64,000 bases of DNA from Lentisphaerota bacterium (GTDB taxonomy: Bacteria > Verrucomicrobiota > Lentisphaeria > Oligosphaerales > JABHEG01). Shown here one piece after another: positions 26,938 to 49,374 of this stretch. Position numbers and translations under genes: made by a program. The stretch lies in the NCBI GenBank assembly GCA_018676675.1, contig JABHEG010000028.1:62001-126000 (forward strand), read 5' to 3'. Below the pieces are notes generated by a model. It had not been told where the DNA came from, did no database searches, and worked only from the letters and a program-made list of their open reading frames with translations. Numbering within the stretch: position 1 is the stretch's first letter; every line of letters starts with the position of its first letter.

Positions 26938-26966
26938 CCGCCATTCCAGGCTTGAGGAAACACGCC

Positions 26967-29354
26967 ATGACCAGACGAGCCAATCCCGACGCCCGCGCTT
27001 CTGCCATCACTGAATCAGCGTGTTCCGTCGAGGGTGATATCACCGGCCCCGCTCAGGCGCTGACCCTTTGGTACCGGCAGCCTGCTGCCGAGTGGGTTGA
27101 GGCGCTGCCGATTGGCAATGGCGCCTTGGGGGCCATGGTCTACGGTGGAGTCAATCGCGAATGGCTGCAACTCAATGAAGAGAGTCTGTGGACCGGCCGC
27201 CCAATTGTCCGCGATCGTGAGGGAGCCTTTGACGCCCTTGGCGAAGCCCGGCGTCTCCTTTTTGCCGGCAAGTATGCCGAAGCCGAAGCGTTGATCGAGG
27301 AGCGCTTCATGGGGCGTCGCATCGAACGCGGAAGCCACACGTACCAGACGCTCGGTGATCTTGAGCTCTGTTTCCCGGAACGGACTGCGGTGAGCGAGTA
27401 CCGGCGAGAACTGGATCTGGACCGTGCCGTTGCCGCGGTGCGCTACAGCGACGGTGAGGCGGTTCACACTCGGGAAGCTTTTGCCAGTGCCCCGGATCAC
27501 GTTCTCGTTCTCAGACTGTCGTGTGATCACCCGGGAGGCGTCACCTTTGACGCGTCGCTGACCCGGTGCCCGAGTGCCGCCGTCACCCCGGTTGGCGATA
27601 ACGGCGTGCTGATAACGGGCCAGGCTCACGCTATCGAAGAACTGCAGGACGAGGGCGATGGCAGCGCGCGAGAGGGGGTGTGCTATGCCTCCGGAATCCG
27701 TGTGGTCGCGCATGGCGGATCGGTGCGTTGTGAAGGGAATTGTGTCCGCGTGGTTGGTGCGGATTCGGCGGAGATCCTCCTGGCTGCTGCTACCGATTTC
27801 CAGGGGCAGGATCCCGCATCAACCTGCGCTGATCGGCTCAGAACGGCCAGCGCCCGTCCTTTCGCCGATCTCCTTGCCCGCCACGTTGAAGACTACCAAC
27901 GCCTCTTCCGGCGCGTATCCTTCGAGTTGGGGACGCCCGCTCCCGCAGCACTCCCGACCGATGAGCTCCTGGCCCGGGCCGAGGAGGGAGAGTGTACTTC
28001 TGCCCTCCTGTCCCTGTATTTCCAGTTCGGCCGATACCTGTTGATTTCGTCCTCACGGCCAGGTGGCCTGCCGGCCAACCTCCAGGGCATCTGGGCGGAC
28101 GGCTTTGATCCCCCCTGGAACGCTGACTACCACACCAACATCAACCTCCAGATGAACTACTGGCCGGCCGAAGTGTGCGCTCTCACCGAGTGCCATGAGC
28201 CCCTCTTCACGTTTGTGGATGCGCTTCGTCCCCGTGGTCGCGAGACCGCACGTGACGTTTTTGACTGCCGCGGTTTCGTCGTCGGGCACACGACGGACGT
28301 CTGGCTCCATGGCAGCATCATCGGGAAGCCGGCCTACGGGATGTGGCCCTACGGGGCAGCCTGGTGCGCGTGTCATTTCTGGGAACACTTTTCTTTTGGC
28401 GGGGATCGTGATTTCCTGGAGACATTGGGTTACCCGGTCATGCGCGAGGCCGCCGAGTTCCTGCTGGATTTCCTTGTCGAGCACCCGGCAACGGGGCAGC
28501 TTGTGTCCGGCCCTTCCACATCACCTGAGAATCGCTTCCGGACTGCTGATGGTCAGGTCGCCCATCTGACCATGGGGCCTACCATGGACCACCAGATCAT
28601 TCGTGACCTGTTCGGGCATTGCATCAAGGCGTCGCAGCTGCTGGGGACGGATTCATCCTTCAGGGCTGAGCTCGAAGAGGCTCTGGAACGGTTGGCCCCG
28701 CCACGGATTGGCTCTGATGGTCGGCTGATGGAGTGGCCTGAAGAGTTCGAAGAGCCTGAGCCGGGGCATCGCCACATCTCGCATCTCTACGGCCTTCACC
28801 CGGGAGCCCAGATCACCCCTGAACGCACACCACATCTCGTTGAGGCCGCTCAGCGGACCCTCGACTATCGGCTCGCGAACGGTGGCGGACATACGGGGTG
28901 GAGTCGTGCCTGGATCGTGAACATCTTTGCCCGGCTCCACGATGGCGAACGGGCTTTGGAGAATCTGCAGGCGCTGCTCGCTCAGTCCACGTTGCCGAAC
29001 CTGTTCGACAACCATCCGCCTTTCCAGATCGACGGCAATTTCGGGGGCTCAGCCGGAATGGTGGAGATGCTCCTGCAGAGCCATGAGCTGTTGTCTGGGC
29101 AGTCTCCGGAGCCGAGGTATCTGGTCCGACTTCTCCCCGCGTTGCCGGGAGCCTGGTCAGAGGGGCGCGTCACGGGGCTCCGGGCGCGCGGGGGCCTCGA
29201 AGTCAGCATGGACTGGAACGAAGGCCGGCTGGAGAAGGCGACTTTCAGCTCAGCCAAGTACATGGACGTATCTGTCCAGTACCGCGGAGTGCGCCGGGAG
29301 TTGACGGTTGAGCCGGGCATCCCGATGGTCGCCAGTGGGGACGACTTCAGGTAG
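26967..29354 (+). CDS. GH95 alpha-L-fucosidase-like glycoside hydrolase
   Basis: A 795-residue glycoside hydrolase family 95 enzyme, expected to cleave alpha-1,2-linked fucose or galactose residues. I start at the ATG 26967, nine bases after GAGG; an in-frame TTG at 26952 is less likely. The N-terminal beta-domain opens with L-W-Y-R-Q-P-A and A-L-P-I-G-N-G-A-L-G-A-M. The (alpha/alpha)6 barrel has N-L-Q-M-N-Y-W-P-A-E near 393, S-P-S-T-S-P-E-N near 514, H-I-S-H-L-Y-G-L-H-P-G near 603, and D-G-N-F-G-G near 690, as in family members. No signal peptide is obvious, so the enzyme may act on imported oligosaccharides. It starts 29 bp after mutL but has its own ribosome binding site; co-transcription is possible. 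Confidence 0.92.
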   Translation: MTRRANPDARASAITESACSVEGDITGPAQALTLWYRQPAAEWVEALPIGNGALGAMVYGGVNREWLQLNEESLWTGRPIVRDREGAFDALGEARRLLFAGKYAEAEALIEERFMGRRIERGSHTYQTLGDLELCFPERTAVSEYRRELDLDRAVAAVRYSDGEAVHTREAFASAPDHVLVLRLSCDHPGGVTFDASLTRCPSAAVTPVGDNGVLITGQAHAIEELQDEGDGSAREGVCYASGIRVVAHGGSVRCEGNCVRVVGADSAEILLAAATDFQGQDPASTCADRLRTASARPFADLLARHVEDYQRLFRRVSFELGTPAPAALPTDELLARAEEGECTSALLSLYFQFGRYLLISSSRPGGLPANLQGIWADGFDPPWNADYHTNINLQMNYWPAEVCALTECHEPLFTFVDALRPRGRETARDVFDCRGFVVGHTTDVWLHGSIIGKPAYGMWPYGAAWCACHFWEHFSFGGDRDFLETLGYPVMREAAEFLLDFLVEHPATGQLVSGPSTSPENRFRTADGQVAHLTMGPTMDHQIIRDLFGHCIKASQLLGTDSSFRAELEEALERLAPPRIGSDGRLMEWPEEFEEPEPGHRHISHLYGLHPGAQITPERTPHLVEAAQRTLDYRLANGGGHTGWSRAWIVNIFARLHDGERALENLQALLAQSTLPNLFDNHPPFQIDGNFGGSAGMVEMLLQSHELLSGQSPEPRYLVRLLPALPGAWSEGRVTGLRARGGLEVSMDWNEGRLEKATFSSAKYMDVSVQYRGVRRELTVEPGIPMVASGDDFR

Positions 29355-29388: not shown

Positions 29389-30627
29389 TCAGTCGGGAGT
29401 CAAGCTACCGAACTCGTGGGCTGCCTCGAACATGGTCAGGAGATTGTCCACGGGAACGGTCTGCTGGATGTTGTGGACTTGCGTGAAGACGTATCCGCCC
29501 TTCTGCCCGAAGGCCGCGATGTTGCGCTTGATGTGTTTCCGGATCTCTTCCCGACTTCCCTTGGGGAGCACGGACTGCGTGTCGCAGCCGCCGCCCCAGA
29601 ACACGACTTTCCCACCGTAGGCTTCCATGAGCTCGTCAGGATCCATGTTGGCTGCAGAGATCTGGACCGGGTTGAGGATGTCGATCCCCGCGTCGATCCA
29701 GTGCTCGATGTAGCGGAATATCGATCCGCAGGAATGCAGGTAGGTCTTCCACGGCGTATTGGTGTGGACCCAGTCACAAAGCCTTGTGTAGTGGGGTTTT
29801 ATCATTTCTTCGAAGAGTTCGGGCGATACGAGTTCACTGCGCTGTGTCCCGGCGTCGTCCGACGCGATTCCCCATGCTACGCACCGGTTCCCGACCGCCT
29901 CGTGGTAGAGTTTGAGGCAGGCGATGACGGCATCGACATACCGGGCCATCATGTCGTTAGCGGCCGCCTTCTCGGTCATCAGCATGCAGAGCCAGTTGTC
30001 GAGGGATCCCTGAGTGATGTTGTCTGAGAGGAGTGCGCTCATGCCGAGGAGGCTCAGGCTGAACCCCCAACCGAGGATTGCTTTGTCGGTCTCCCGGAAG
30101 AGGTAGTCAGCCCGGGCGCGCAGGGCCTCCAGCTCTTCGTCAGGTACGGTCGTTGGTGGCCGGAACGCATCGGGGTTGATCTGGTCGCCGCTCATCGTGG
30201 AGCGCACGTAATCGAAGTAGTAGCCATCCTTTGGCATGTGTGCGAAAGCTGTCCCCGCACTGTCACAGTGCATCCAACTCCCATCCGGTTCGGTTCGAAT
30301 GGCCGTCCCGGGAGGGAACGTGACACGCTGTCCGCAGAAGAGGGTCACGGGGACGCCGTCGTCAGCACGTTGCCCGGCCCATCGGGAGAGCCCCGGCTCC
30401 AGAGGGACGACATCTCCATGGAGTCGGTCAAGTACGTCGAGTTCCACCTGGGCCAGAATCTGGAGCTTGTCCCAAATCTTGGTTGGGGTGTGGATCCCCA
30501 GTCGCTGTTTGAGCTCGTGGTAAACAACCGCATTTATGCCGCTCGCTCTCATGCCGCCGAGATCGATCGGGACGCGGTCCGGCGTCCCGAAGTTCACGGC
30601 TTCCGCAACTCGCTCACGTGATGTCAT
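29389..30627 (-). CDS. Uroporphyrinogen decarboxylase-like protein (catabolic clade)
   Basis: A 412-residue UroD/MtaA-family protein. The ATG at 30627 has GAGGAGG eight bases upstream, so the longer reading to 30729 is rejected. The product begins M-T-S-R-E-R-V, the usual family start. It has P-D-R-V-P-I-D-L near residue 20, the zinc-type ligand pattern L-H-S-C-G-S near 312, and G-G-G-C-D-T-Q near 355 in place of the HemE arginine cluster. Compared with the MtaA-like gene at 20848 it is 78 residues longer, with insertions in the middle. This clade is common in sugar and plant-polymer degraders and may be a corrinoid-dependent demethylase component, but no substrate is known. It is convergent with the GH95 gene and 34 bp from it. 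Confidence 0.82.
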   Translation of the reverse strand: MTSRERVAEAVNFGTPDRVPIDLGGMRASGINAVVYHELKQRLGIHTPTKIWDKLQILAQVELDVLDRLHGDVVPLEPGLSRWAGQRADDGVPVTLFCGQRVTFPPGTAIRTEPDGSWMHCDSAGTAFAHMPKDGYYFDYVRSTMSGDQINPDAFRPPTTVPDEELEALRARADYLFRETDKAILGWGFSLSLLGMSALLSDNITQGSLDNWLCMLMTEKAAANDMMARYVDAVIACLKLYHEAVGNRCVAWGIASDDAGTQRSELVSPELFEEMIKPHYTRLCDWVHTNTPWKTYLHSCGSIFRYIEHWIDAGIDILNPVQISAANMDPDELMEAYGGKVVFWGGGCDTQSVLPKGSREEIRKHIKRNIAAFGQKGGYVFTQVHNIQQTVPVDNLLTMFEAAHEFGSLTPD

Positions 30628-30663
30628 CGTCTCGGCCTCCTCGGTCGACTTGTCTCCCACACG

Positions 30664-30675
30664 TGTCAGGTGACA
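30664..30675. promoter_or_regulatory. Short dyad upstream of the UroD-like gene
   Basis: TGTCA-GG-TGACA is a perfect 12-bp dyad in the divergent spacer, 37 bp before the UroD-like ATG. It could be an operator half-site pair; nothing else supports it. Confidence 0.25.
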
Positions 30676-30796
30676 GGATATTGGCTCACACCGCTTGCTG
30701 CAAGCCGCCTCCTTTTGGACTCGAATCACCGGGATCTCGCGCTATAGTTTCGGGCTCGCAATGACATAACGGGGCCAGGCACACCGTGGAGGATAC

Positions 30797-32310: not shown

Positions 32311-33837
32311 CTACTGAGTACGCGGGATGAAGACACCGGGCCAGACCCCAGTGTGCGTGCCGTGGTCCAGGACGACCTTGCCATTCACGAGCACGTAGTT
32401 GATGCCGACCGGGTAACGATGGGGGTCCTCGAAGGTCGCGAGGTCCGCGATCGTGTCCGCTCCGAACACCGCAACATCAGCCCATGCCCCGGCCTTGAGC
32501 ACACCACGATCACTGATCCCAAGCCTTTCGGCGGGCATCGAGGTCATTCTTCTGACCGCCTCCTCGATGGGGAATAGCGCCTTCTCTCTGCAGTAGCGAG
32601 CGAGAACACGCGGGAACGTGCCGTAAAGTCTTGGGTGCGGGTGACCAGCGCCCACGTCCACTCCCCATCCGTCAGACGCAATGATGGTGTGCTCGTAGCG
32701 CATGATACGCTCGACATCGCTCTCACTCATGCTGTGGGACGTACACATCGTGTCGCAGGACGCGGGCCTGTCCTTGGCCAGCTCCAGCACGAATTCAGCC
32801 ATATCTGCGTACACGTCTTCGGCTCCACGTTGATCTGCGATCTCCGCAAACGTCATCCCCACCAACCCCGGTTCGATCACCGAACTGGCGATCAGGATGC
32901 GCTCCAGTTCTCCGCCGTAGAAGCTCTTGTAGAGCTTGACAACGGCCTCTTTGATCTGTGCCCGAGTCCCGGGATCCCGCAGCCTCGCATGGGCCTCCTC
33001 GTCTCCGCTTGAGCAGACCCAACGTGGCATGATCGTGCCGACGCGGGCGCACGATGCCGTGTAGGGATACTGATCAGGAACAACATCAATACCCTCGGCT
33101 CGGGCCGCGTCGATGACCCCCAGCGTGGCCTCGCTCTTCCCCCAGTTCGGAACACCTGCAACCTTGTGGTGCGAGATCTGCACCGGCAAGCCGCTTGCCC
33201 GGCCAACCGCAATGGCCTCTGCCATCGCCTCCTCCACGCTGTCGGCCTCGTCGCGCATATGGGTGCTGTAGAAGCCTCCGTATCCCGCCGCGGTCTGCGC
33301 AAGCTCAGCCAACTCCTGCGGTTGCGCATAGCACCCGGGCACGTAGTAAAGACCGCTGGACAGAGCAATTGCGCCGCGCTCCATGGCTGCGCTGACCAAC
33401 CGTTTCATTTCGCTGAGCTCAGCGACGGATGGCGGCCGATCGGCCTGACCCATCACGGCCCCACGCACGGAGTTATGGCCGATCATCATTGCCAGATTGG
33501 TGTTCTGGTCGATGCACTCGAGGTCACCCATCATGGCCTCGAAATCGACTGGGCCAAAGCCGCAGTTCCCGCCGACAACCGTGGTCACCCCCTGCTGGAT
33601 GTAGTTCATGCTCCCGCCGCGCCGTGAATGCTTGGGATCAAGCCCGCAGTGCGTATGGAGATCGACGAAACCGGGCGACACCACCTGGCCTCGGGCATCC
33701 AGGCGCTGCCGGGCTTCGGCCCGCCCCAAATCCTCCAGAGCCGCGATCCGCCCTTGCGATATGCCCAGGTCAGCACGCCTTCCAGGGCGCCCCGTGCCGT
33801 CGACGATCGTCCCCCCCTCAATCACCAGATCAAACAT
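32311..33837 (-). CDS. N-acyl-D-amino-acid deacylase / D-aminoacylase family amidohydrolase
   Basis: A 508-residue metal-dependent amidohydrolase. It starts best at the ATG 33837, with AAAGGG about eight bases upstream; a GTG six codons earlier is possible. The N-terminal small beta-domain begins F-D-L-V-I-E-G-G-T-I-V-D-G-T-G, and the TIM barrel opens with P-G-F-V-D-L-H-T-H-C (metal ligands in H-T-H) near residue 60. H-M-R-D-E-A-D-S-V-E (near 190) and S-H-H-K (near 220) supply more ligands, and an A-S-D-G-W loop near 380 carries a family Asp. C-terminal residues close the small domain. The family releases D-amino acids from N-acyl forms. No signal peptide is seen. Its presence near the D-threonine-aldolase-like operon at 42.9 kb is suggestive. 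Confidence 0.88.
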   Translation of the reverse strand: MFDLVIEGGTIVDGTGRPGRRADLGISQGRIAALEDLGRAEARQRLDARGQVVSPGFVDLHTHCGLDPKHSRRGGSMNYIQQGVTTVVGGNCGFGPVDFEAMMGDLECIDQNTNLAMMIGHNSVRGAVMGQADRPPSVAELSEMKRLVSAAMERGAIALSSGLYYVPGCYAQPQELAELAQTAAGYGGFYSTHMRDEADSVEEAMAEAIAVGRASGLPVQISHHKVAGVPNWGKSEATLGVIDAARAEGIDVVPDQYPYTASCARVGTIMPRWVCSSGDEEAHARLRDPGTRAQIKEAVVKLYKSFYGGELERILIASSVIEPGLVGMTFAEIADQRGAEDVYADMAEFVLELAKDRPASCDTMCTSHSMSESDVERIMRYEHTIIASDGWGVDVGAGHPHPRLYGTFPRVLARYCREKALFPIEEAVRRMTSMPAERLGISDRGVLKAGAWADVAVFGADTIADLATFEDPHRYPVGINYVLVNGKVVLDHGTHTGVWPGVFIPRTQ

Positions 33838-33969
33838 ACCCGTATCCCTTTCCACCTTTCACGTGCCCCGTGCATGCGGAGTCGGCGATGGTAGTCTACA
33901 GTGTCTGTGCGAACGAATCACGGCCCCACACAGGCTCGACTGTCACTTTCACGCCGGAAGGAACGCTCA

Positions 33970-35857: not shown

Positions 35858-37315
35858 ATGAACAAACCGAACATCATCTACATCCTGGCCGACGATATGG
35901 GCTACGGGGATGTGTCGTGTCTGAATCCGGATTCAAAGATCCATACACCCAACATCGACCGGCTTGCGTCCGAAGGGATGGCGTTCACGGATGCCCATTC
36001 CAGCTCGGCCGTCTGCACCCCCTCCCGCTACAGCATTCTCACCGGGAGGTACAACTGGCGTTCCTCTCTGAAGCAAGGCGTCCTTCAAGGATACGATGGT
36101 CCCCTGATCGAGTCGGGGCGCGAAACCGCTGCGTCCCTGCTGCGTCGACACGGGTATCACACCAACTGCGTAGGGAAATGGCATCTCGGCTGGGACTGGC
36201 ACCTCAACAGTTCTGATCCCAAAGACATCGATTTCGCCAAGCCCATCAGCAACGGACCACGGGATCGGGGCGGGTTTGACCGCTTCTTCGGTATCATCGC
36301 GTCCCTCGACATGCCACCGTTCGTCTACGTAAACGACGACCTGCCAACCGCGATCCCGGACCGCATCATTGACGGCAAACGCGAGGAGCAGGTCATTTGG
36401 AGCCAGGGCCCCATCGCTCCTGACTTCACCCACGACGGCGTGCTGCCGGCATTTGCCGAAAACGCTTGTAACATCATCCGGGAACGAGCCGCAGCCGATC
36501 AGCCGTTCTTCCTCTATTTCCCGCTCAACTCACCCCACGCGCCATGTCTCCCAACGCCCGAGTTCAAGGGCGCCTCCGGCCTCAACGACTTCGCCGACTT
36601 CTGCCTGATGACCGATGCGGTGGTGGGCCAGGTACTGGACACCCTTGCCGCGTGCGGTCTGGAGGAAAACACGATCGTCATCTTCACCAGTGACAATGGC
36701 TGCACCCCGGTAGCCGACTTTGAGACCCTCGCCCGTTTCGGACACCACCCCAGTTACGTATTCCGCGGCCACAAAGCGGACATCTACGAAGGGGGACACC
36801 GTATTCCTCTGCTGATCCGCTGGCCTGAGCAGATCGAGGCCGGTCGAGTGTGTGATGAGACGGTGTGCCTCGTGGATTTCCTGGCAACCTGTGCAGATAT
36901 CGTGGGTGAAAGCCTGTCCGACAACGCCGGTGAAGACAGTGTCAGCAATCTCCCTCTCTGGCGTGGTGAGACCCCGGGTTCGACGCTCCGCGAAGCAACC
37001 GTGCACCACTCGTATTTCGGTGCCTTCTCGATTCGACAGGGCCGTTGGAAGCTCGAGTTCTGCCCGGGCTCAGGTGGTTGGAGCTCGCCGAGGCCAGGAC
37101 AGGAGCCGGCAGGATCCCCCCTGACCCAGCTGTACGACCTCGACGCGGACATTGGTGAACGAACGAACCTGGTCGATCAGCACCCGGCCGTGGTGGCCCA
37201 CCTGACCAATCTGATGATCCGCTATGTCCGCGAAGGACGCAGTACCCCGGGTGCCCCTCAGGCCAACACTGGGCCCGCCCACTGGCCACAGCTTGCCTGG
37301 ATGAGTGGATCCTGA
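35858..37315 (+). CDS. Cytoplasmic-type sulfatase (formylglycine-dependent)
   Basis: A 485-residue type I sulfatase. The formylglycine site is C-T-P-S-R with C53, followed by Y-S-I-L-T-G-R. The N-terminal metal-binding block A-D-D-M-G-Y-G-D lies at 11-18, and a K-W-H-L-G loop near 108 and T-S-D-N-G-C near 281 complete the site. As in the sulfatase at 17083, the ORF starts directly at the fold with no signal peptide. The start has AAGGAG about ten bases upstream. It stands alone between the hairpin that follows the MocA gene and the convergent gspF gene. The two cytoplasmic sulfatases differ in length and sequence, so they probably act on different sulfated sugars or acids. Confidence 0.9.
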   Translation: MNKPNIIYILADDMGYGDVSCLNPDSKIHTPNIDRLASEGMAFTDAHSSSAVCTPSRYSILTGRYNWRSSLKQGVLQGYDGPLIESGRETAASLLRRHGYHTNCVGKWHLGWDWHLNSSDPKDIDFAKPISNGPRDRGGFDRFFGIIASLDMPPFVYVNDDLPTAIPDRIIDGKREEQVIWSQGPIAPDFTHDGVLPAFAENACNIIRERAAADQPFFLYFPLNSPHAPCLPTPEFKGASGLNDFADFCLMTDAVVGQVLDTLAACGLEENTIVIFTSDNGCTPVADFETLARFGHHPSYVFRGHKADIYEGGHRIPLLIRWPEQIEAGRVCDETVCLVDFLATCADIVGESLSDNAGEDSVSNLPLWRGETPGSTLREATVHHSYFGAFSIRQGRWKLEFCPGSGGWSSPRPGQEPAGSPLTQLYDLDADIGERTNLVDQHPAVVAHLTNLMIRYVREGRSTPGAPQANTGPAHWPQLAWMSGS

Positions 37316-41235: not shown

Positions 41236-42699
41236 TCACCATCTTCCGTCGTTGGCCTGATCATACTGCGGATTGCGGGCGGGGATCGTCGCTCCGGTTG
41301 CCTTGCGCCAGGCGATGAGTTTAGCCCGCAGTTCACTGAGAAGCTCCGGACGATCGCCGGATAGGTCGTTCCGTTCGCCAATGTCTTCCCGCAAATTGTA
41401 GAGTTCGAGTTTCCCGTCTTCGAAGAACTCGATGACCTTGTAGTCGCCTGAGCGCATTGCATGGGCAGGGGCTTGCCGGCCGGGCAGGTACCCGGGCATC
41501 CACCAGAAAATGTCTGTGCGTTCGAGCGTCCCCCGTGAGTCTCTCAGAAGCGGAACGATGCTCTCGCCGTCCAGTTCCTGTTCGGATGGAGCCTGGGCGC
41601 CGGCCACTTCGACAAACGTGGGGTAGAGATCGACTCCCGTGACGGGAACCCGGCACACCGAACCAGCTGATGTGATCCCCGGCCAACGGACGAACATCGG
41701 GACACGAATCCCTCCTTCGTAGAGCATGCCCTTCATGCCGCGCAGAGGCACGTTTGAGGTGAGACCATTGCCCGGCCCGAGCCCGGGGTTCTTCGCGGTC
41801 CCGCAACCCCCGTTGTCGGAGAAGAAGATGACCATCGTGTTCTCCGCGAGTCCAAGCTCATCCAGTTTGCTCAGCACACGCCCAAAATTGGTGTCAAGCG
41901 TCTCGATCATCGCGGCGTAGACAGGATTCCGGTGCCCTCCCACAGCCGCCTTGGCTTTGTACTTCGCAACAAGGGCTTCTTTGGCCTCCAAGGGAACATG
42001 CACAAGGTACTCCGCGTAGTAGAGGCAGAACGGCCGGTCTCGGTTCGCCTCAAGAAATGACAGCGCTCGCCCTGCCAGGACGTCACTCAGATAGGCTTTC
42101 GGCTCGTCTTCGCTCTTCCGTCTCCCCCCGTCCGGCCTAATCCAGTGAGTTTTTGATGTCGGGATAGGGAGAGATTCAGCAAAGCCCTGGCCGGCAGGCG
42201 ACTCGCCTGCACCGCCACCAAGATGCCACTTCCCGAAGTGCCCGCACACGTAGCCGGCAGCTTTGAGGGCCTCCGCAAACGTCACCTTGTCCCCCGCGAG
42301 CCCCTTCTCGTTGTCAGGTGCAAGGAGCTTCCGTTCATGCCACTTGAGGAGTCTCTTGTTGGTGTCAAAACGCCTTTTTCCTCCGACGGTGTAGACGCCA
42401 TGCCGCGGGGCGTACTGCCCGGAGAACACACAGGCTCGAGCGGGCGCGCAGTTCGCGGCAGGACTATAGGCGTCGGTGAACCTCATGCTCTGGGCGCAGA
42501 GCCGATCGAGATTGGGCGTCTCGTAATACCCGCTGCCATAGCACCCCAGATCGGTCCAGCCCAAGTCATCCGCATATAGAAAGACGATATTTGGGGGACG
42601 TTTGGGAAGCGGAGCGGAGCGGAGTAACCCTGGAAGGGCCAACCCTACGAGTAAAGCGAGACCAATCTGTTTCAGGAAGTCGCATCTGCCAATAGCCAT
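41236..42699 (-). CDS. Exported sulfatase with degenerate Tat-type signal
   Basis: A 487-residue type I sulfatase with an N-terminal signal. The leader reads G-R-C-D-F-L-K-Q followed by a hydrophobic core and A-cleavage near 30. This resembles a twin-arginine motif (R-R-x-F-L-K) with the second Arg replaced by Cys (codon TGC, one transition from CGC). The fold starts at about 35, with metal residues in Y-A-D-D-L-G-W-T-D-L-G. The formylglycine site is C-A-P-A-R at C84, a C-x-P-x-R variant with Ala in place of Ser at position 4. S-D-N-G-G-C-G lies near 294. GAGGTG lies six bases before the ATG. It stands as a single gene, divergent from the D-threonine-aldolase-like gene. Confidence 0.88.
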   Translation of the reverse strand: MAIGRCDFLKQIGLALLVGLALPGLLRSAPLPKRPPNIVFLYADDLGWTDLGCYGSGYYETPNLDRLCAQSMRFTDAYSPAANCAPARACVFSGQYAPRHGVYTVGGKRRFDTNKRLLKWHERKLLAPDNEKGLAGDKVTFAEALKAAGYVCGHFGKWHLGGGAGESPAGQGFAESLPIPTSKTHWIRPDGGRRKSEDEPKAYLSDVLAGRALSFLEANRDRPFCLYYAEYLVHVPLEAKEALVAKYKAKAAVGGHRNPVYAAMIETLDTNFGRVLSKLDELGLAENTMVIFFSDNGGCGTAKNPGLGPGNGLTSNVPLRGMKGMLYEGGIRVPMFVRWPGITSAGSVCRVPVTGVDLYPTFVEVAGAQAPSEQELDGESIVPLLRDSRGTLERTDIFWWMPGYLPGRQAPAHAMRSGDYKVIEFFEDGKLELYNLREDIGERNDLSGDRPELLSELRAKLIAWRKATGATIPARNPQYDQANDGRW

Positions 42700-42882: not shown

Positions 42883-43974
42883 GTGGCGCGAAGCAACGCA
42901 GAACTCGTAGGACGCAGCGTGTCGGAGCTGGCGACACCTTGCTTGATTGTAGACGAAGCGGCACTCACAGCCAATTTGGAGTTGCTGGCCTCGTATTTTG
43001 AGGATCGGGTGTGCAAGATCCGTCCCCACTTCAAAGCTCACAAGTGCGTCAGCCTCGCGCGACGGCAACTCTCAACGGGGAGCTGTGTTGGCATCTGCTG
43101 CGCCAAGCTGTCTGAAGCAGAGGTGCTGGTAGAAGGCGGTATAGAAGACGTGCTGATCGCGAATCAGGTCGTTGGCCCGGACAAAGCCACGCGCCTGGCC
43201 AGACTCAACCGGACGGCAACGGTGCGCTGTGCAGTTGACGACTGCGCCAATATCGCCGAGCTTGGCGCCGCAGCCGCAGAGGAGGGAGTCACCGTCGGCA
43301 TCCTCGTGGAAGTCGACGTGGGGATGAAACGCTGCGGGGTGCCGCCTGGCCAGCCGGCTGTCACAATGGCGCAGTTGGTCGCTGCCACTCCGGGCCTGCG
43401 TTTCGATGGACTGCAGGGATACGAAGGACACGCCGTTGTCCTGCCGGACTACGACGAACGGAAACAACGTGTCACTGAGGATCTCGGGATGCTCGTGGAT
43501 ACTCGTCGCGCCATCGAGTCAAGCGGCCTGCCGGTCAAGATCGTGTCCTCAGGAGGAACCGGAACCTACGACATCACCGGCAACATCCCTGGGATTGACG
43601 AAGTGCAATGTGGTACCTATGCCCTGATGGACGTTTTTTATGCTCAGGTGAGGCCGGAGTTCGCGATCGCGCGATCGATTCTCGCCACCGTCGTCTCCAA
43701 CAAGCACGACCAGGTGGTTGTGGACGTGGGGCTGAAGGGCATCGGTGGGGAATTCTGCGACCCCGTCCTACTGGAGTACCCAGAGGCCAAACCGCGCTAC
43801 GTCTCGGAAGAACACACCCCCTTTATGGAGGTGACTGAGGACGTCGGGAAGCGAGTTTACATCCTTCCGCCGCATGGATGCACCACGAACAACCTCCACC
43901 GGGAGCTTTACCTTGTCCGCAACGGCAAGGTCGTCGATGTTTGGCCCATTGAGGGCGCCGGGTGCCTCGAATAG
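42883..43974 (+). CDS. D-threonine-aldolase-like (DSD1-family) PLP enzyme
   Basis: A 363-residue fold-type III PLP enzyme of the D-threonine aldolase / D-serine dehydratase (DSD1) family. I choose the GTG at 42883 because GGAGGG lies six bases upstream; a TTG at 42841 has no such site. The product begins just before the conserved T-P-C-L-I-V-D. The PLP lysine is in P-H-F-K-A-H-K (K51), and the C-terminal metal-site motif P-P-H-G-C-T-T-N near 332 has His and Cys, as in D-threonine aldolase. Expected chemistry is cleavage or dehydration of D-3-hydroxy amino acids. It is the first gene of a five-gene unit (gaps 51, 23, 59 and 34 bp) ending at the terminator at 47682. Exact substrate is unknown. 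Confidence 0.88.
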   Translation: MARSNAELVGRSVSELATPCLIVDEAALTANLELLASYFEDRVCKIRPHFKAHKCVSLARRQLSTGSCVGICCAKLSEAEVLVEGGIEDVLIANQVVGPDKATRLARLNRTATVRCAVDDCANIAELGAAAAEEGVTVGILVEVDVGMKRCGVPPGQPAVTMAQLVAATPGLRFDGLQGYEGHAVVLPDYDERKQRVTEDLGMLVDTRRAIESSGLPVKIVSSGGTGTYDITGNIPGIDEVQCGTYALMDVFYAQVRPEFAIARSILATVVSNKHDQVVVDVGLKGIGGEFCDPVLLEYPEAKPRYVSEEHTPFMEVTEDVGKRVYILPPHGCTTNNLHRELYLVRNGKVVDVWPIEGAGCLE

Positions 43975-44025
43975 AGCACTGGATACCAGACACAATAGCA
44001 GCAGCACACCACTGGGAGACAAGGA

Positions 44026-44481
44026 ATGGCCACGTATATCGAGATGCGTTACCTGGAAGACGACATCGCCGTCCGTGCCCGTCTGCTCGAAGACGACATG
44101 CCGCGAACGTGCGCGGAGCTCCTGAAGGACCTCCCGCTCGAGAGCACAGCCACTCATGCCCGATACTCAGGCAGCGAGGTCGCGATGCTACTCTCCACCG
44201 ACATCCACATCGAGCGCGAAAAGGCGACGTGTGCAACGCTGCCTGGGGACGTCGCTTACGTCTGGCTCAATGAAGACGATCACTACGGGCTGGATGGTGA
44301 TGTCTCCGAAATCTGCTGGTTCTATGACCGGGATTGCTGCCCGAGTATGTTCGAAGGGCCGGTTCTCGTGAATATCTTCGCTCAGATCGAAGGAGATACC
44401 AAGGCATTCTACGACGCATGCGCCGACACCCGGATCAGCGGCGTCAAGACCCTCCGCATCAGCCTGGTCAAGGATGCGTGA
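44026..44481 (+). CDS. DUF3830 cyclophilin-like protein
   Basis: A 151-residue protein of the DUF3830 family, a cyclophilin-like beta-barrel of unknown function. Family features are E-D-D-M-P-R-T-C-A-E near 22-31, L-P-L-E-S-T-A-T-H-A-R-Y-S-G (36-49) and L-P-G-D-V-A-Y near 72-78. Family members typically occur beside N-acyl-D-amino-acid deacylases, DSD1-type aldolases and related catabolic genes in proteobacteria (established gene-neighbourhood knowledge, not checked here). It follows the PLP enzyme by 51 bp. With no recognised catalytic residues it may be a small accessory or an uncharacterised hydrolase. Confidence 0.82.
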   Translation: MATYIEMRYLEDDIAVRARLLEDDMPRTCAELLKDLPLESTATHARYSGSEVAMLLSTDIHIEREKATCATLPGDVAYVWLNEDDHYGLDGDVSEICWFYDRDCCPSMFEGPVLVNIFAQIEGDTKAFYDACADTRISGVKTLRISLVKDA

Positions 44482-44504
44482 CCCGGAAAAGGAGAAGCGT
44501 TGGT

Positions 44505-45494
44505 ATGGGTGAGCAAAGCAAGGCTGCGGGAGTTGGGACGGTCGGTCTGGTTGGTTTGGGACTGATGGGGCGCGGCATTGCGGCCTGCCTGCTGAGCCAC
44601 GGCATGCGCGTGGTTGCCTTCAATCGTACGGCTGAACGGGCCAGGAAGGCCCGTGAGTTCATCGCCAACGCAATGGACGAGGTGGTGGCACGCGGCGTGG
44701 CCGAGGCCGAAACGGTGGCTGATTGGGCCGAACGTTTCACAATCGTTCCGGCCATTGACGGCTTGGCCGAGTGCCCCTTCGTGGTCGAGTCTGTCAAAGA
44801 GGACATCGTGCTCAAACGTGACCTGTTTGGCCAGCTTGAAGCCTGCCTGGCGGCCGATGCGGTCATCGCTTCGAATACCTCGAGTTTCCCGCTGACCATG
44901 CTCCAGAGCAAGAGTCAACATCCTGAACGGTTCGTGATCATGCACTGGTCTGAACCGGCTTGGATTACCCGCTTCCTGGAAATCGTCCGCAACGAGGTGA
45001 CATCCGAAGCCACCATCACCCGAACAAAGGCGTTGGGCCTCGCGTGCGGTAAAGAGCCGAGCTTCCTGAACTTCGATATCCGCGGCTTCGTCGCCAATCG
45101 CCTGATGTACGCGTTCATCCGTGAGGCTTGTCACCTGGCTGATATCGGCGTAGCGGACGTTGCCACGATCGATCGATCATTCCGGAATGACGTGGGCTGG
45201 TGGGCAACCATCGCCGGTCCTTTCCGCTGGATGGATCTGACGGGCATACAGGCCTATGGACTGGTCATGGAAGGGCTCCTGCCCGAGCTCTGCAACGACG
45301 GGAAACTCCCGGAAATCATGGAAAAGATGATGGCAGAGGGGGCCGAAGGGACAGGAAACCAGACAGGGTTCTATCCCTATACCCCCGAAACAGCCAAAGT
45401 GTGGGAGGAGGCCTGGGTGGAATTCAGCTACGATGTGCGCGAGCTCCTGCAGAAGCACGAAGCACGACTCCGCGAACGTGGAGCTCTCGAGTAA
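44505..45494 (+). CDS. 3-hydroxyacyl-CoA-dehydrogenase-family NAD enzyme
   Basis: A 329-residue dehydrogenase with a Rossmann N-terminal domain (G-L-V-G-L-G-L-M-G-R-G, residues about 14-24) and the helical C-terminal domain. The segment N-T-S-S-F-P-L (near 126) and the substituted M-H-W-S-E-P near 146 (normally H-F-F-N-P) keep the catalytic His, but the CoA-contacting surroundings are atypical, so a small non-CoA hydroxy acid substrate is plausible, as in lambda-crystallin-like relatives. The catalytic-domain start F-V-A-N-R-L-M-Y is near 195. AAGGAG lies about 10-12 bases before the ATG. It follows the DUF3830 gene after 23 bp. Confidence 0.88.
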   Translation: MGEQSKAAGVGTVGLVGLGLMGRGIAACLLSHGMRVVAFNRTAERARKAREFIANAMDEVVARGVAEAETVADWAERFTIVPAIDGLAECPFVVESVKEDIVLKRDLFGQLEACLAADAVIASNTSSFPLTMLQSKSQHPERFVIMHWSEPAWITRFLEIVRNEVTSEATITRTKALGLACGKEPSFLNFDIRGFVANRLMYAFIREACHLADIGVADVATIDRSFRNDVGWWATIAGPFRWMDLTGIQAYGLVMEGLLPELCNDGKLPEIMEKMMAEGAEGTGNQTGFYPYTPETAKVWEEAWVEFSYDVRELLQKHEARLRERGALE

Positions 45495-45553
45495 GCTCCC
45501 CCCCCTGACACGTGCCACGGATGAAAGCACATCGGGCCCCAGTCGGCAACCCC

Positions 45554-46402
45554 ATGGCGAAGAACATCTCCATCCGAGTTCTGGTCGAGAACACCGCGGA
45601 GGAAGAAGGGACATTGGCCGAGCACGGCTGGGCGGTCTGGGTCTGCGCGGGAGATCATCGCGTTCTCCTTGATGCCGGCCAGGGCGTTGCGGACGTGCTC
45701 CTCCGCAATGCGATCCGCCAAAACGTCCCTCTGGCAACGGCCGATGCCATCGTTCTGAGTCATGGTCATCACGACCATACCGGGGCCTTGGCGCAAGCCC
45801 TCCCGCTAATGTCCCGGCCGGCCATTTTCGCCCATCCCGCTGCCCTCGCCCCCAAGTACGCCAAACGCCGTGGGACTTCTGCGCGGGAAGCCGGTATACC
45901 GGCAGCGGCGCTTCGCGCAATTGAGGAGCATGCCGGGCAGATCGTGGAAACGACCTCGCCCACGGAAATCTGCCCGGGTGTCCACGTCACCGGCCCTGTT
46001 CCCCGTCTGACGACCTTCGAGAAGACCAACCGTCGCTTCTTCCTGGATGAAAATCTGACGCGCCCTGATCCACTGCATGATGATCAAGCTCTGTACGTGG
46101 ACAGCAAAGCCGGCACGGTGGTTGTGCTCGGGTGTGCCCACGCCGGCGTAGTGAACACCCTGATATACATCCGTGAACTCACGTCAGGCCGGCCTCTGCA
46201 CGCCGTCCTCGGAGGACTGCACCTCGGCTCCGCATCGCAGGACTGCATTGTGCAGACCATCGACGCTCTCCGCGATTTGGGCGTACAGCGTTTCTGCGTC
46301 GGGCATTGTACCGGGATAGTCGCCCAGACGGCGTTGTGGGCCGCATTCCCGGGAAAATGCATGCCCTGTCATGTCGGGGCACGGTTGACGGTCGAGCAAT
46401 GA
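45554..46402 (+). CDS. Metallo-beta-lactamase-fold hydrolase (dihydropterin-synthase-like clade)
   Basis: A 282-residue MBL-fold protein. The ATG at 45554 is chosen because the product then starts at the usual I-S-I-R-V-L-V-E-N strand, though no strong ribosome binding site is seen. The metal motif H-G-H-H-D-H is intact (near 63-68), with further ligands in G-C-A-H-A-G (near 196) and G-G-L-H (near 220). The opening L-L-D-A-G-Q-G is typical, and the closest group I recognise is the beta-ribofuranosylaminobenzene 5'-phosphate-synthase-like MBL clade. In this operon it is more likely a catabolic lactonase or ester hydrolase; this is inference. Gaps on both sides are under 60 bp. Confidence 0.85.
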   Translation: MAKNISIRVLVENTAEEEGTLAEHGWAVWVCAGDHRVLLDAGQGVADVLLRNAIRQNVPLATADAIVLSHGHHDHTGALAQALPLMSRPAIFAHPAALAPKYAKRRGTSAREAGIPAAALRAIEEHAGQIVETTSPTEICPGVHVTGPVPRLTTFEKTNRRFFLDENLTRPDPLHDDQALYVDSKAGTVVVLGCAHAGVVNTLIYIRELTSGRPLHAVLGGLHLGSASQDCIVQTIDALRDLGVQRFCVGHCTGIVAQTALWAAFPGKCMPCHVGARLTVEQ

Positions 46403-46436
46403 AGGTCCTGCCGCGTCGGTGCCGGAAAGGGAATCC

Positions 46437-47681
46437 ATGGACATTTCCAGAACGTATGATGTCATCGTTGTTGGGGGCGGAATCTCCGGGACAATGGCCG
46501 CCATCTCTGCCGCCCGCGAAGCTGCACACACACTGCTGGTTGAACGATATTCAGCCCTGGGCGGCATGGGGACGCTCGGACTGGTCCAGCCTATCACCAC
46601 GTGGGGCCTCGGCAAGAACTATGTGGTAGGCGGAACAGGACGCCGGATCCTGGAAGAACTGGCTCAGTCTCACCCGTACGCAGCCACCGGCATGACCACC
46701 TACGGCCCCTCCTGTGACAGCGAATACCTCAAGTGGTGCCTGGAGTGTCGGGCCGTCGATGCAGGCGTGGATCTGCTCTATCACAGCTGGGTTCGAGATG
46801 TGACGACCGCTCAGGACGGCCGGATAACCAGTCTGGTCGCGCTCACCAAGGCAGGCGATGTTGTCCTCAAGGGCAAGACCATCATTGATGCCTCCGGCGA
46901 TGCGGATGTTGCCGCTTTCGCCGGCGTCCCTTTCGATGTCGGCTCCCAGGGAATAACGCTGATGTTCCTGGTCGCGGGAATCGATCGCCAACGCTGCGGA
47001 AAACGCAACGAGATCAGCCGGGTCTATGGTGAACGCCGCGTGGGGTACCGAGGACTGGCGCTCTTCTGGCACGCCAGACCGGACGCGGCCTACTTCAATG
47101 TGACCGAGGTCGAAAACCACAACGCGCTCGATCCGGTGGACCTTACACGAGCCACGGTGGACTGCCGACGGCAGGCATGGCAGATCCTCGAGATCATGAG
47201 AAAACACGCCCCGGGATTTGAGGAGGCCTACATTGCGGAGACCGCACCGGCGCTGGGGGTGCGCGAGACACGACGGATCAAAGGGCTGTTCACACTGGGG
47301 CTGGACGACGTGAAACGCGGCGGATCATTCCCCGACGCCATCGCCCGGGCCGGATGTCCGGTCGATGTGCATGGGAGTGCGGACAACGGGAAGGGGGACT
47401 ACTGGGGGCTCTCGGCCAGCTATGCGATCCCCTACCGCTCCCTGATCGCGGCGGAAACGCCGAACCTGATCGTGACCGGCCGGCCGATATCCGCGGACCA
47501 CGCAGCCCATTCCTCGCTCCGACGCATGGCCCCGGGATTCGCTCTGGGCGAAGCGGCCGGCGTGGCTGCAGCACTTACCGGGGAGGGGGATGTACGCGAA
47601 CTCGACACCGGAGCCCTCCGGGAAACACTGCGCCAGTACGGCGCCATACTGGACCCGGAGGATGAGATACCGTCAGGCTAA
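46437..47681 (+). CDS. FAD-dependent oxidoreductase (FAD_oxidored family)
   Basis: A 414-residue flavoprotein. The ATG at 46437, with AAAGGG upstream, puts the dinucleotide motif V-V-G-G-G-I-S-G at residues 11-18, followed by the E-R-Y-S-A-L-G-G-M-G block that binds FAD. D-A-S-G-D-A-D-V-A near 145 and the C-terminal G-R-P-I-S-A-D-H-A-A-H-S-S-L-R-R-M pattern are typical of PF12831-type proteins, which oxidise hydroxylated or aminated carbon compounds in a poorly known way. It is the last gene of the operon and ends directly before a perfect terminator hairpin. Confidence 0.88.
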   Translation: MDISRTYDVIVVGGGISGTMAAISAAREAAHTLLVERYSALGGMGTLGLVQPITTWGLGKNYVVGGTGRRILEELAQSHPYAATGMTTYGPSCDSEYLKWCLECRAVDAGVDLLYHSWVRDVTTAQDGRITSLVALTKAGDVVLKGKTIIDASGDADVAAFAGVPFDVGSQGITLMFLVAGIDRQRCGKRNEISRVYGERRVGYRGLALFWHARPDAAYFNVTEVENHNALDPVDLTRATVDCRRQAWQILEIMRKHAPGFEEAYIAETAPALGVRETRRIKGLFTLGLDDVKRGGSFPDAIARAGCPVDVHGSADNGKGDYWGLSASYAIPYRSLIAAETPNLIVTGRPISADHAAHSSLRRMAPGFALGEAAGVAAALTGEGDVRELDTGALRETLRQYGAILDPEDEIPSG

Positions 47682-47712: not shown

Positions 47713-49374
47713 CTAGAGCTCTTTCCCGCGGCCTTGGTCGACAAGCTTGAACTCTTCCATGTGCAACGATGCTTCGCCCCGGAAGGACAGTTCTCCACCG
47801 AACTCAGACTCCATGGACATCAGCAGGTCCGCATCCTCGTTCCGAAGACGCTCGAGGATGCTGGGATGCACCATGACACGCACATGTTCAGGCTTGCGGC
47901 GCTGACGCAGGATATGCTGGAGTCGGCGCTGGATCTCGACGCTCATGCTCGTCGCGGACTTCACCATGCCCTTGCCTTCGCAGTAGGGGCAGGGCGAGTA
48001 GATGGCATCCAGCAGGCTCTCGTGCTCGCGCTGCCGAGTCATCTCCACCAGACCCAGCGGGCTGATGGCGTAGGTCTTGGTCCGGGCGCGGTCCTCCAGC
48101 AGGGCCTTCTTCAGAGTGGTGTAGACTTCGCGCTGGTCCGGCTTGGCCCTCATGTCAATCAGATCCAGAACGATTAGACCACCGAGATTGCGCAAGCGCA
48201 ACTGGCGGGCAATCTCGTCGACCGCCTCAAGATTGGTCTGCTTTATCGTTTCAGGATGATCCTTGCCCTTGCGGTTTTTCCCGGAGTTGACATCAATCGC
48301 AATCAACGCCTCAGTCTCGTCAATGCAGATGTATCCGCCGCTGGGAAGCGGCACGCGACGGCCGAACACGTTCTCAATCTGTTGGGTCAGCCGGTAGCGC
48401 TGGAAGATCGGGACGGCGTCGCGGTGGTACTTGATCTTGACCCGCTCCCGGCGACTGAGTTTCTGCAGCTTCGTCTGAGCAAGCTCACAGACATCCTTGC
48501 TGTCGGAGACAACTTCGTCCACATCTTCGGTCATCACATCACGCAGAGCCCGTTCCACAAGGTCCGGCTCCTGGTATACGCAGCAGGGAGCCCGTTTGTT
48601 CTTCAGGTTGTCCTCGAGGAGTTCCCAGGCGTCGAGAAGCATGTCCAGATCACGCTGGAAAAACTCTTCTTTCTTGCCGGCGCCGACTGTACGGCAGATC
48701 ACGCCCATGCCCGAAGGGATGTCCAGATCCCGCAGGATCTGACGCAGTCGAGAGCGTTCTTCATGGTCCTCGACCCGCTTCGACACACCGATGTGTGAGG
48801 AATTGGGCAGCAAAACCAGGTAACGCCCGGGGATACTGAGGTTCGTGGTGACTCGGGCCCCCTTGGTGCCAATCGGCCCCTTGGTGACTTGCACGAGTAC
48901 TTCAGAGTTGACCTTGAACAGATCCGGAATGTCCTCGACCGTGAAGTTGTTCTTCTTCCGGGCGGGTTTCCGGCGACGCCGCTGCCGTTGCGGGGGTGGC
49001 GGGGGGGCCTCCTCCTCAGCTTTCCCGAAGAAGCGGCTCCGGATACGCCCGATCAACGTCTCTTTGACCGGCTCGACCTCAGGCTGGCGCCGCTGCCGCT
49101 GCCGCTGTTGAGGGCGCTGGGAGTTGCCCTCTTCCAGCATCTCCTGAGTGGCGGGGAGCATGTCCCAGTAGTGGAGAAACGCGTTCTTCTCGGCTCCCAC
49201 ATCCACAAACGCGGCCTGCAGAGAGGCCTCCAGATTGCGGATCTTGCCTTGGAAAATGGAGCCGACAAGACGCTCTTCATCACGACGTTCGATGAAGAAA
49301 TCCCGTAGCCTGCCGTTCTCGACAACGGCAACACGAGTCTGCAGTTCTTCGCAGTTAATCAGTATTTGTTTCAT
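47713..49374 (-). CDS. rng: Ribonuclease E/G with basic insert in the S1 region
   Basis: A 553-residue endoribonuclease of the RNase E/G family, acting in rRNA maturation and mRNA decay. The S1-like fold starts at G-S-I-F-Q-G-K-I-R-N-L near 38-48 and A-F-V-D-V-G near 55. After residue about 84 there is an unusual Gln/Arg/Pro-rich insert of about 60 residues (about 84-145) before the S1 fold resumes at V-N-S-E-V-L-V-Q-V-T-K. The catalytic DNase-I-like domain has A-I-D-V-N-S-G-K near 345 and L-D-L-I-D-M near 388, and the zinc-link C-P-Y-C-E-G-K-G is near 455. It follows fmt by 35 bp. Length is close to RNase G plus the insert. Confidence 0.95.
   Translation of the reverse strand: MKQILINCEELQTRVAVVENGRLRDFFIERRDEERLVGSIFQGKIRNLEASLQAAFVDVGAEKNAFLHYWDMLPATQEMLEEGNSQRPQQRQRQRRQPEVEPVKETLIGRIRSRFFGKAEEEAPPPPPQRQRRRRKPARKKNNFTVEDIPDLFKVNSEVLVQVTKGPIGTKGARVTTNLSIPGRYLVLLPNSSHIGVSKRVEDHEERSRLRQILRDLDIPSGMGVICRTVGAGKKEEFFQRDLDMLLDAWELLEDNLKNKRAPCCVYQEPDLVERALRDVMTEDVDEVVSDSKDVCELAQTKLQKLSRRERVKIKYHRDAVPIFQRYRLTQQIENVFGRRVPLPSGGYICIDETEALIAIDVNSGKNRKGKDHPETIKQTNLEAVDEIARQLRLRNLGGLIVLDLIDMRAKPDQREVYTTLKKALLEDRARTKTYAISPLGLVEMTRQREHESLLDAIYSPCPYCEGKGMVKSATSMSVEIQRRLQHILRQRRKPEHVRVMVHPSILERLRNEDADLLMSMESEFGGELSFRGEASLHMEEFKLVDQGRGKEL

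What the first reader, a model, noticed from the sequence alone, without database searches (positions are those of the whole stretch)
42883..47681. Five-gene operon pairing a D-specific PLP enzyme with DUF3830 and three redox/hydrolytic enzymes
Seen: tight same-strand spacing (51, 23, 59, 34 bp) and one clear terminator after the last gene. Family knowledge: DSD1/D-threonine-aldolase enzymes act on D-3-hydroxy amino acids; DUF3830 has no known function but often neighbours D-amino-acid genes. Inference: the unit is a degradation route for a D-configured hydroxy amino acid or hydroxy acid, with the 3-hydroxyacyl-CoA-dehydrogenase-like, MBL and FAD steps following. An N-acyl-D-amino-acid deacylase at 32311-33837 could supply the substrate. 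I know of no described pathway with this exact set.
Basis: partly seen in the sequence, partly recalled or inferred. Interest (0 to 1): 0.72.

Follow-up and report, generated by a model that had tools for sequence, protein, structure and literature searches.

The report
Scattered D-hydroxy-amino-acid breakdown module (DUF3830)
Five tightly packed bacterial genes contain a three-gene core, including the uncharacterised family DUF3830, that recurs in bacteria labelled as several different phyla; together they likely break down an unusual D-configured hydroxy amino acid, possibly an oxidised amino sugar, and would give DUF3830 its first pathway.

Summary
The five genes are real and tightly spaced, but elsewhere they were not found together as five. 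The conserved part is PLP enzyme, DUF3830 and a 3-hydroxyacyl-CoA-dehydrogenase-like gene (3HCDH). In 8 of 8 close DUF3830 loci 3HCDH follows DUF3830, and all 8 genomes also carry a related PLP gene and a particular aldehyde dehydrogenase, side by side in 6. Close homologues of the window's metallo-beta-lactamase (MBL) and FAD genes were in none of 14 DUF3830 loci, though one (L008) has a distant FAD_oxidored gene nearby; both look like local additions. The window's genome gave no match to the aldehyde dehydrogenase.

The PLP enzyme has the D-threonine-aldolase scaffold without its signature residues: metal ligands His and Cys, not His and Asp, and Val in place of catalytic His193. D-serine dehydratase is reported to have this pattern, so ammonia removal is likelier than aldol cleavage. 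DUF3830's fold is closest, after its own family, to bacterial Pictet-Spenglerases. Best reading: a sporadically spread catabolic module for a D-3-hydroxy amino acid, perhaps an amino-sugar acid as in the oxidative chitin pathway. Substrate and activities are untested. The deacylase 9 kb away shows no linkage.

The parts
42883..43974 (+). PLP enzyme, fold type III, D-threonine-aldolase scaffold with dehydratase-type metal ligands (363 aa)
43033..43035 (+). Lys51, equivalent of the PLP-binding lysine (RPHFK motif; role recalled)
   Evidence: invariant in alignment A3; aligns with RPHAK of D-threonine aldolases
43420..43440 (+). YEGH loop; Val186 stands where D-threonine aldolase has its general base His193
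   Evidence: role of His193 from PMC4401734 (passages read)
43873..43881 (+). His331-Gly-Cys333, predicted metal ligands (His/Cys as in D-serine dehydratase; aldolases have His/Asp)
   Evidence: PMC4401734
44026..44481 (+). DUF3830 protein (151 aa), cyclophilin-like fold
44505..45494 (+). 3-hydroxyacyl-CoA-dehydrogenase-like NAD enzyme (329 aa), probably on a non-CoA substrate
   Evidence: PF02737 + PF00725; nearest solved protein 4om8, FHMPC dehydrogenase; MHWxEP motif
45554..46402 (+). MBL-fold hydrolase (282 aa); looks like a local addition, not part of the conserved core
   Evidence: PF00753; nearest solved 2p4z, Tm1679 3h3e, 7dck; no match in 14 of 14 DUF3830 loci
46437..47681 (+). FAD_oxidored flavoprotein (414 aa); looks like a local addition; 101 matches to it in this genome
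   Evidence: PF12831 325.6 bits; no match at E 1e-5 in 14 DUF3830 loci, a distant family member in L008
47682..47708 (.). 10-bp hairpin between convergent genes; possible transcription end
   Evidence: fold about -21 kcal/mol; not listed by the terminator scan

Best explanation
Five tandem genes carry a core (PLP enzyme, DUF3830, 3HCDH-like dehydrogenase) that recurs in other bacteria, and this core is likely a catabolic module in which the PLP enzyme is predicted to remove ammonia from a D-configured 3-hydroxy amino acid. The product of that step would be a 2-oxo-3-deoxy acid. Inferred: the most likely substrate class is an amino-sugar acid (2-amino-2-deoxy-aldonate), delivered by a symporter and freed by a deacetylase in the genomes that have them. 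In two planctomycete-labelled genomes an HpcH/HpaI aldolase would then split the oxo acid into pyruvate and an aldehyde, and the module's aldehyde dehydrogenase would oxidise that aldehyde. The 3HCDH-like enzyme is predicted to oxidise a free beta-hydroxy acid or aldehyde rather than a CoA ester. DUF3830 is predicted to be a small enzyme or binding protein for a carbonyl or imine intermediate. In the window's genome, where no match to the aldehyde dehydrogenase was found, the FAD oxidoreductase and the MBL hydrolase may supply a different oxidation (for example sugar to lactone, then lactone to acid). Shown: gene order, conservation, co-occurrence and active-site residues. Inferred: every reaction and the substrate.
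For: Core: 3HCDH directly after DUF3830 in 8 of 8 close loci (66-83% DUF3830 identity), with the PLP gene before DUF3830 on 5 of 8. Separately, 10 of the 52 DUF3830 hits on contigs of 3 kb or more share their exact contig length with a 3HCDH hit (jittered-length null: mean 0.1, max 2; best 120 hits of each list). All 8 genomes have a PLP homologue at 49-62% and the aldehyde dehydrogenase (L008's copy was the query; 63-83% in the other 7); it lies directly before PLP in 6 of 8. In 294 genomes of the phylum of G288, a PLP homologue at 49% or more occurs in G288 plus 1 other. Distance matrices correlate: 3HCDH-ALDH r 0.88, PLP-ALDH 0.62, DUF3830-3HCDH 0.61, DUF3830-ALDH 0.57, 3HCDH-PLP 0.54. Dehydratase type: His-x-Cys, YEGH loop and no His193 equivalent in 12 of 12 close sequences (9 from the module genomes, window included, and 3 from G296/G297), against His-x-Asp plus His193 in 3 of 3 solved aldolases (meaning of the residues from PMC4401734). 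HpcH/HpaI aldolase and Gfo/Idh in the PLP clusters of G288 and G289. Sodium symporter in 3 of 8 and M20 amidohydrolase in 2 of 8 close loci, several of them cut short. [quoted passage not shown]
Confidence: 0.42

Rival explanations
1. The PLP enzyme is an aldolase after all: it cleaves a D-3-hydroxy amino acid to glycine and an aldehyde, which the neighbouring aldehyde dehydrogenase oxidises; the invariant His of the YEGH loop replaces His193.
For: Aldolase scaffold; aldehyde dehydrogenase directly before PLP in 6 of 8 genomes; a distant DUF3830 lies beside a GntG-family aldolase of unrelated fold.
Against: Asp ligand and His193 both absent in 12 of 12 close sequences. The window's genome has no match to the aldehyde dehydrogenase. 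In a small unrooted tree the three solved aldolases sit among lineages that mostly have His-x-Cys (node supports 0.75-0.89), so His/Asp may be derived.
Confidence: 0.3
2. The window operon is a chance or transcription-level grouping: a conserved trio followed by two unrelated genes of very large families, with no common pathway.
For: MBL and FAD in 0 of 14 DUF3830 loci at E 1e-5; no contig of 3 kb or more shared between the MBL and DUF3830 top-120 lists, and only the window's own contig shared between MBL and 3HCDH; 101 FAD matches in this genome.
Against: Gaps of 59 and 34 bp on one strand and no gene between. A distant FAD_oxidored gene lies three genes after 3HCDH in L008, one of only 4 close loci that reach more than 500 bp past 3HCDH. 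This rival concerns only the last two genes, not the core.
Confidence: 0.18
3. The PLP enzyme is a racemase or epimerase of a hydroxy amino acid feeding ordinary L-amino-acid breakdown.
For: Fold-III enzymes include racemases; alanine racemase models match weakly (TIGR00492, 20.9 bits against a cut-off of 168).
Confidence: 0.07

Closest known systems
D-threonine aldolase / BhcC 3-hydroxy-D-aspartate aldolase (4v15, 7dib, 6qkb)
   Same: Same fold and full-length match; Lys of the RPHxK motif kept
   Different: His/Asp metal pair and His193 base replaced by His/Cys and Val; BhcC model 279 bits against a cut-off of 690
D-serine dehydratase (3anu) and D-threo-3-hydroxyaspartate dehydratase (3wqc)
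   Same: His/Cys metal pair, no His193 (3wqc; 3anu: PMC4401734 passages)
Oxidative chitin (ong) pathway of Pseudoalteromonas
   Same: Fold-III PLP ammonia-lyase on a D-amino-sugar acid, SSS-family transporter, deacetylase (PMC9537276, passages)
   Different: KdgK and RidA counterparts not recognised (not searched for); the module adds DUF3830, 3HCDH and an aldehyde dehydrogenase; OngC's sequence was not compared
5-formyl-3-hydroxy-2-methylpyridine 4-carboxylate 5-dehydrogenase (4om8)
   Same: Nearest solved relative of the 3HCDH-like enzyme, with MHWSNP for MHWSEP; acts on a non-CoA aldehyde (from its name)
   Different: NF042925 scores 184 bits against a cut-off of 500; no other vitamin-B6 breakdown gene was recognised among the five
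Pictet-Spenglerases KslB and McbB
   Different: 12-18% identity; catalytic residues not compared

Membership tests
D-threonine aldolase (fold-III, metal-dependent) | Fold-III barrel with the PLP lysine | tested here: met
D-threonine aldolase (fold-III, metal-dependent) | Metal held by His347 and Asp349 | tested here: not met
   His331 and Cys333 instead
D-threonine aldolase (fold-III, metal-dependent) | General base His193 | tested here: not met
   Val186; T/A/Y/M/D/L in the other 11 close sequences
D-threonine aldolase (fold-III, metal-dependent) | Glycine and aldehyde as products | not testable with these tools
   needs an assay
D-serine / D-3-hydroxyaspartate dehydratase | His/Cys metal pair and no His193 | tested here: met
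   PMC4401734
D-serine / D-3-hydroxyaspartate dehydratase | Sequence and fold closer to dehydratases than to aldolases | tested here: not met
BhcC equivalog (NF045642) | Score over the curated cut-off of 690 bits | tested here: not met
   278.9 bits
beta-hydroxyaspartate cycle | bhcA, bhcB and bhcD with bhcC | tested here: inconclusive
   none among the five genes (gene set recalled); not searched for in the genome
DUF3830 (PF12903) | Score over the gathering cut-off of 26 bits | tested here: met
   75.1 bits
FHMPC dehydrogenase (NF042925) | Score over the curated cut-off of 500 bits | tested here: not met
   184.2 bits
Oxidative chitin (ong) pathway | Fold-III PLP ammonia-lyase with SSS transporter and deacetylase | tested here: inconclusive
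   symporter in 3 of 8 and M20 in 2 of 8 close loci; neither is among the window's five genes; OngC itself was not compared
Pictet-Spenglerase (KslB/McbB) | Cyclophilin-like fold | tested here: met
Pictet-Spenglerase (KslB/McbB) | Catalytic residues and condensation activity | not tested
   no residue-level comparison made

The most novel reading that the evidence does not exclude
DUF3830 is the signature enzyme of an undescribed catabolic route: a cyclophilin-like enzyme, built on the Pictet-Spenglerase fold, that resolves or forms the imine or aminal made when a 3-hydroxy amino acid meets its carbonyl product, working with a new His/Cys subclass of the D-threonine-aldolase family and a non-CoA 3HCDH.
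Probability: 0.13. Interest if true: 0.75.

Novelty: new variant of a known kind. Interest (0 to 1): 0.5.

Why it matters
DUF3830 has a structure released in 2009 (3kop) but is named by Pfam as of unknown function; the held open-access library has no paper naming DUF3830. A DUF3830-3HCDH pair in 8 of 8 close loci, with the same PLP enzyme and aldehyde dehydrogenase in all eight genomes, gives the family a pathway to test. It also marks a branch of the D-threonine-aldolase family whose members may be mis-named as aldolases: the best NCBIfam model for those scanned is BhcC, yet the aldolase residues are missing. If the substrate is an amino-sugar acid, it would be a different gene set for the problem solved by the oxidative chitin pathway.

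Tried and rejected
Rejected: an ALDH-PLP fusion in G295 suggested by a 903-aa open frame; the two genes are in different frames. Rejected as core partner: MBL. Its nearest homologues in the eight genomes are 54% in G288 and 39% in G295 (weaker ones in G292 and G294), and tblastn of the module proteins against those two stretches finds only MBL itself. Rejected: the deacylase at 32311-33855 as partner (one remote match in L015).

Led nowhere: DUF3830 in plasmids (no match), in viral contigs (15 pattern matches, none confirmed), and in samples of three phyla (1 of 288, 1 of 296, 1 of 294) and two orders (1 of 198; 2 of 196); in each the centre genome is one of the hits. Paper searches for DUF3830, PF12903 with cyclophilin-like, D-glucosaminate dehydratase, BhcC, McbB and the gene set: in the listings I saw nothing that describes this module; of these papers only listings and the starts of abstracts were seen.

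Limits: one search lists 120 of 257 and searches list 120 of 3036 and of 3686 hits; A1 uses the window and 40 of the 120 listed; A2 lacks L002 (coordinates failed), L003, L006 and L009; A3 lacks the G295 PLP. In one search I left out L016-L027 (same genes as rows already in) and sequences of 250 aa or less; L037 and L039 are one gene. In one search no more than 6 candidates per genome are shown as scored. One search reports E 1e-5 or better; at E 0.1 adds one FAD match (L008) and one deacylase match (L015). Only L002, L004, L008 and L009 reach more than 500 bp past 3HCDH. The eight genomes are metagenome bins, so phylum labels may err.

Full report
OBSERVATION. The five ORFs are present as stated: PLP enzyme 42883-43974, DUF3830 44026-44481, 3HCDH-like 44505-45494, MBL 45554-46402, FAD 46437-47681, with gaps of 51, 23, 59 and 34 bp. 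Each passes its Pfam cut-off. Upstream is a divergent sulfatase, downstream a convergent ribonuclease E/G gene (47713-49374). A 10-bp hairpin lies between the two convergent ends but has no T-run on the + strand and was not listed by the scan. GC3 of the five genes (0.70-0.74) lies within that of 20 other long ORFs of the window (0.69-0.77).

CORE VERSUS ADDITIONS. A scan of genome contigs with 41 aligned DUF3830 proteins gave 14 loci: eight close (66-83% identity, L002-L009), six distant (38-46%, L010-L015). The record titles of the eight name planctomycetes, Chlorobiota, Gemmatimonadales, Verrucomicrobiia and Bacteroidetes; they are metagenome bins. In 8 of 8 close loci the 3HCDH-like gene follows DUF3830; in 0 of 6 distant ones is it on the locus. 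PLP precedes DUF3830 on the same stretch in 5 of 8 (directly in L004, L005, L006; one esterase-like gene between in L007 and L008). MBL and FAD homologues at E 1e-5: 0 of 14. A looser look finds one distant FAD_oxidored gene in L008 (24% identity, E 0.002; Pfam 150 bits), three genes after 3HCDH, and only 4 of 8 close loci reach more than 500 bp past 3HCDH, so the absence downstream is tested in few. Protein searches agree on the core: of the DUF3830 and 3HCDH hits on contigs of 3 kb or more (52 and 72), 10 exact contig lengths are shared (null mean 0.1), while DUF3830 and MBL share none (only the 120 best hits of each were compared).

THE MISSING PARTNER. In L004, L005, L006, L007 and L008 an aldehyde dehydrogenase (for L008 the best model is betaine-aldehyde dehydrogenase, below cut-off) lies directly before PLP, with ORFs overlapping by 13-16 bp in four. 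The three close genomes without PLP beside DUF3830 have both genes elsewhere: adjacent in G295, in one cluster with an HpcH/HpaI aldolase and a Gfo/Idh gene in G288, and on two contigs in G289, whose PLP cluster also has HpcH and Gfo/Idh and a divergent second 3HCDH. So 8 of 8 genomes hold PLP (49-62%) and this aldehyde dehydrogenase. As a control, 294 genomes of the phylum of G288 contain a PLP homologue at 49% or more in G288 and one other (48% in a third; threshold chosen after the fact), while the DUF3830 alignment hits only G288 in a sample of the same size drawn the same way. The window's genome (14.1 Mb, 93.9% complete, 8.1% contaminated) has no match to the aldehyde dehydrogenase; at that completeness this is not proof of absence. 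Other recurring neighbours: sodium symporter in L004, L007 and L008; M20 amidohydrolase in L004 and L008; URO-D in L006 and L008.

CO-INHERITANCE. Over 8 or 9 genomes, pairwise distances correlate for 3HCDH-ALDH (0.88), PLP-ALDH (0.62), DUF3830-3HCDH (0.61), DUF3830-ALDH (0.57) and 3HCDH-PLP (0.54), but not for DUF3830-PLP (0.03, 2350 of 5000 shuffles as high). So the pairings are not uniformly tight, and PLP in G288 and G289 is a divergent branch.

SUBSTRATE. The reading as an amino-sugar acid rests on the lyase-type site, the HpcH/HpaI aldolase (2 of 8 genomes), the symporter and deacetylase (3 and 2 of 8 loci) and the parallel with OngC (PMC9537276, passages read). It is an inference of modest strength; a plain D-3-hydroxy amino acid is the safer class statement.

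VERDICT. The operon is real, its first three genes belong to a sporadically spread module for which I found no description, and its last two genes look local.

Noticed in passing
L013, L014, L015, L094: An about 380-aa protein family (no Pfam match for the L014 and L094 members) lies next to or near distant DUF3830 genes; the L014 protein matches the others at 38-75%. Function unknown.
   Followed up: partly
L094:4969-8853 (G1242): Distant DUF3830 in a run with an ArgE-like M20 deacylase, a GntG-family PLP aldolase and an APH-type kinase.
   Followed up: partly
L013:9929-11047 and L014:1221-2234: DUF3830 sits at the start of longer ORFs (372 and 337 aa), perhaps a two-domain form.
   Followed up: no
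window genome G000: 101 matches to the FAD_oxidored protein (pieces counted apart) and no match to the module's aldehyde dehydrogenase in a 14.1-Mb assembly.
   Followed up: partly
L008:13823-14661: A FAD_oxidored gene (PF12831, 150 bits) at the edge of the stretch, three genes after 3HCDH; distant from the window's FAD gene.
   Followed up: partly
window 26952-29354, 35858-37315, 41236-42699: GH95 alpha-L-fucosidase-type hydrolase and two sulfatases: a polysaccharide-degrader setting.
   Followed up: no
window 29389-30729: A URO-D family gene; the same family lies beside the module in L006 and L008.
   Followed up: no
L061:13057-13986: A second 3HCDH-like gene (45% to the window's) divergent from the HpcH-PLP cluster of G289.
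   Followed up: no
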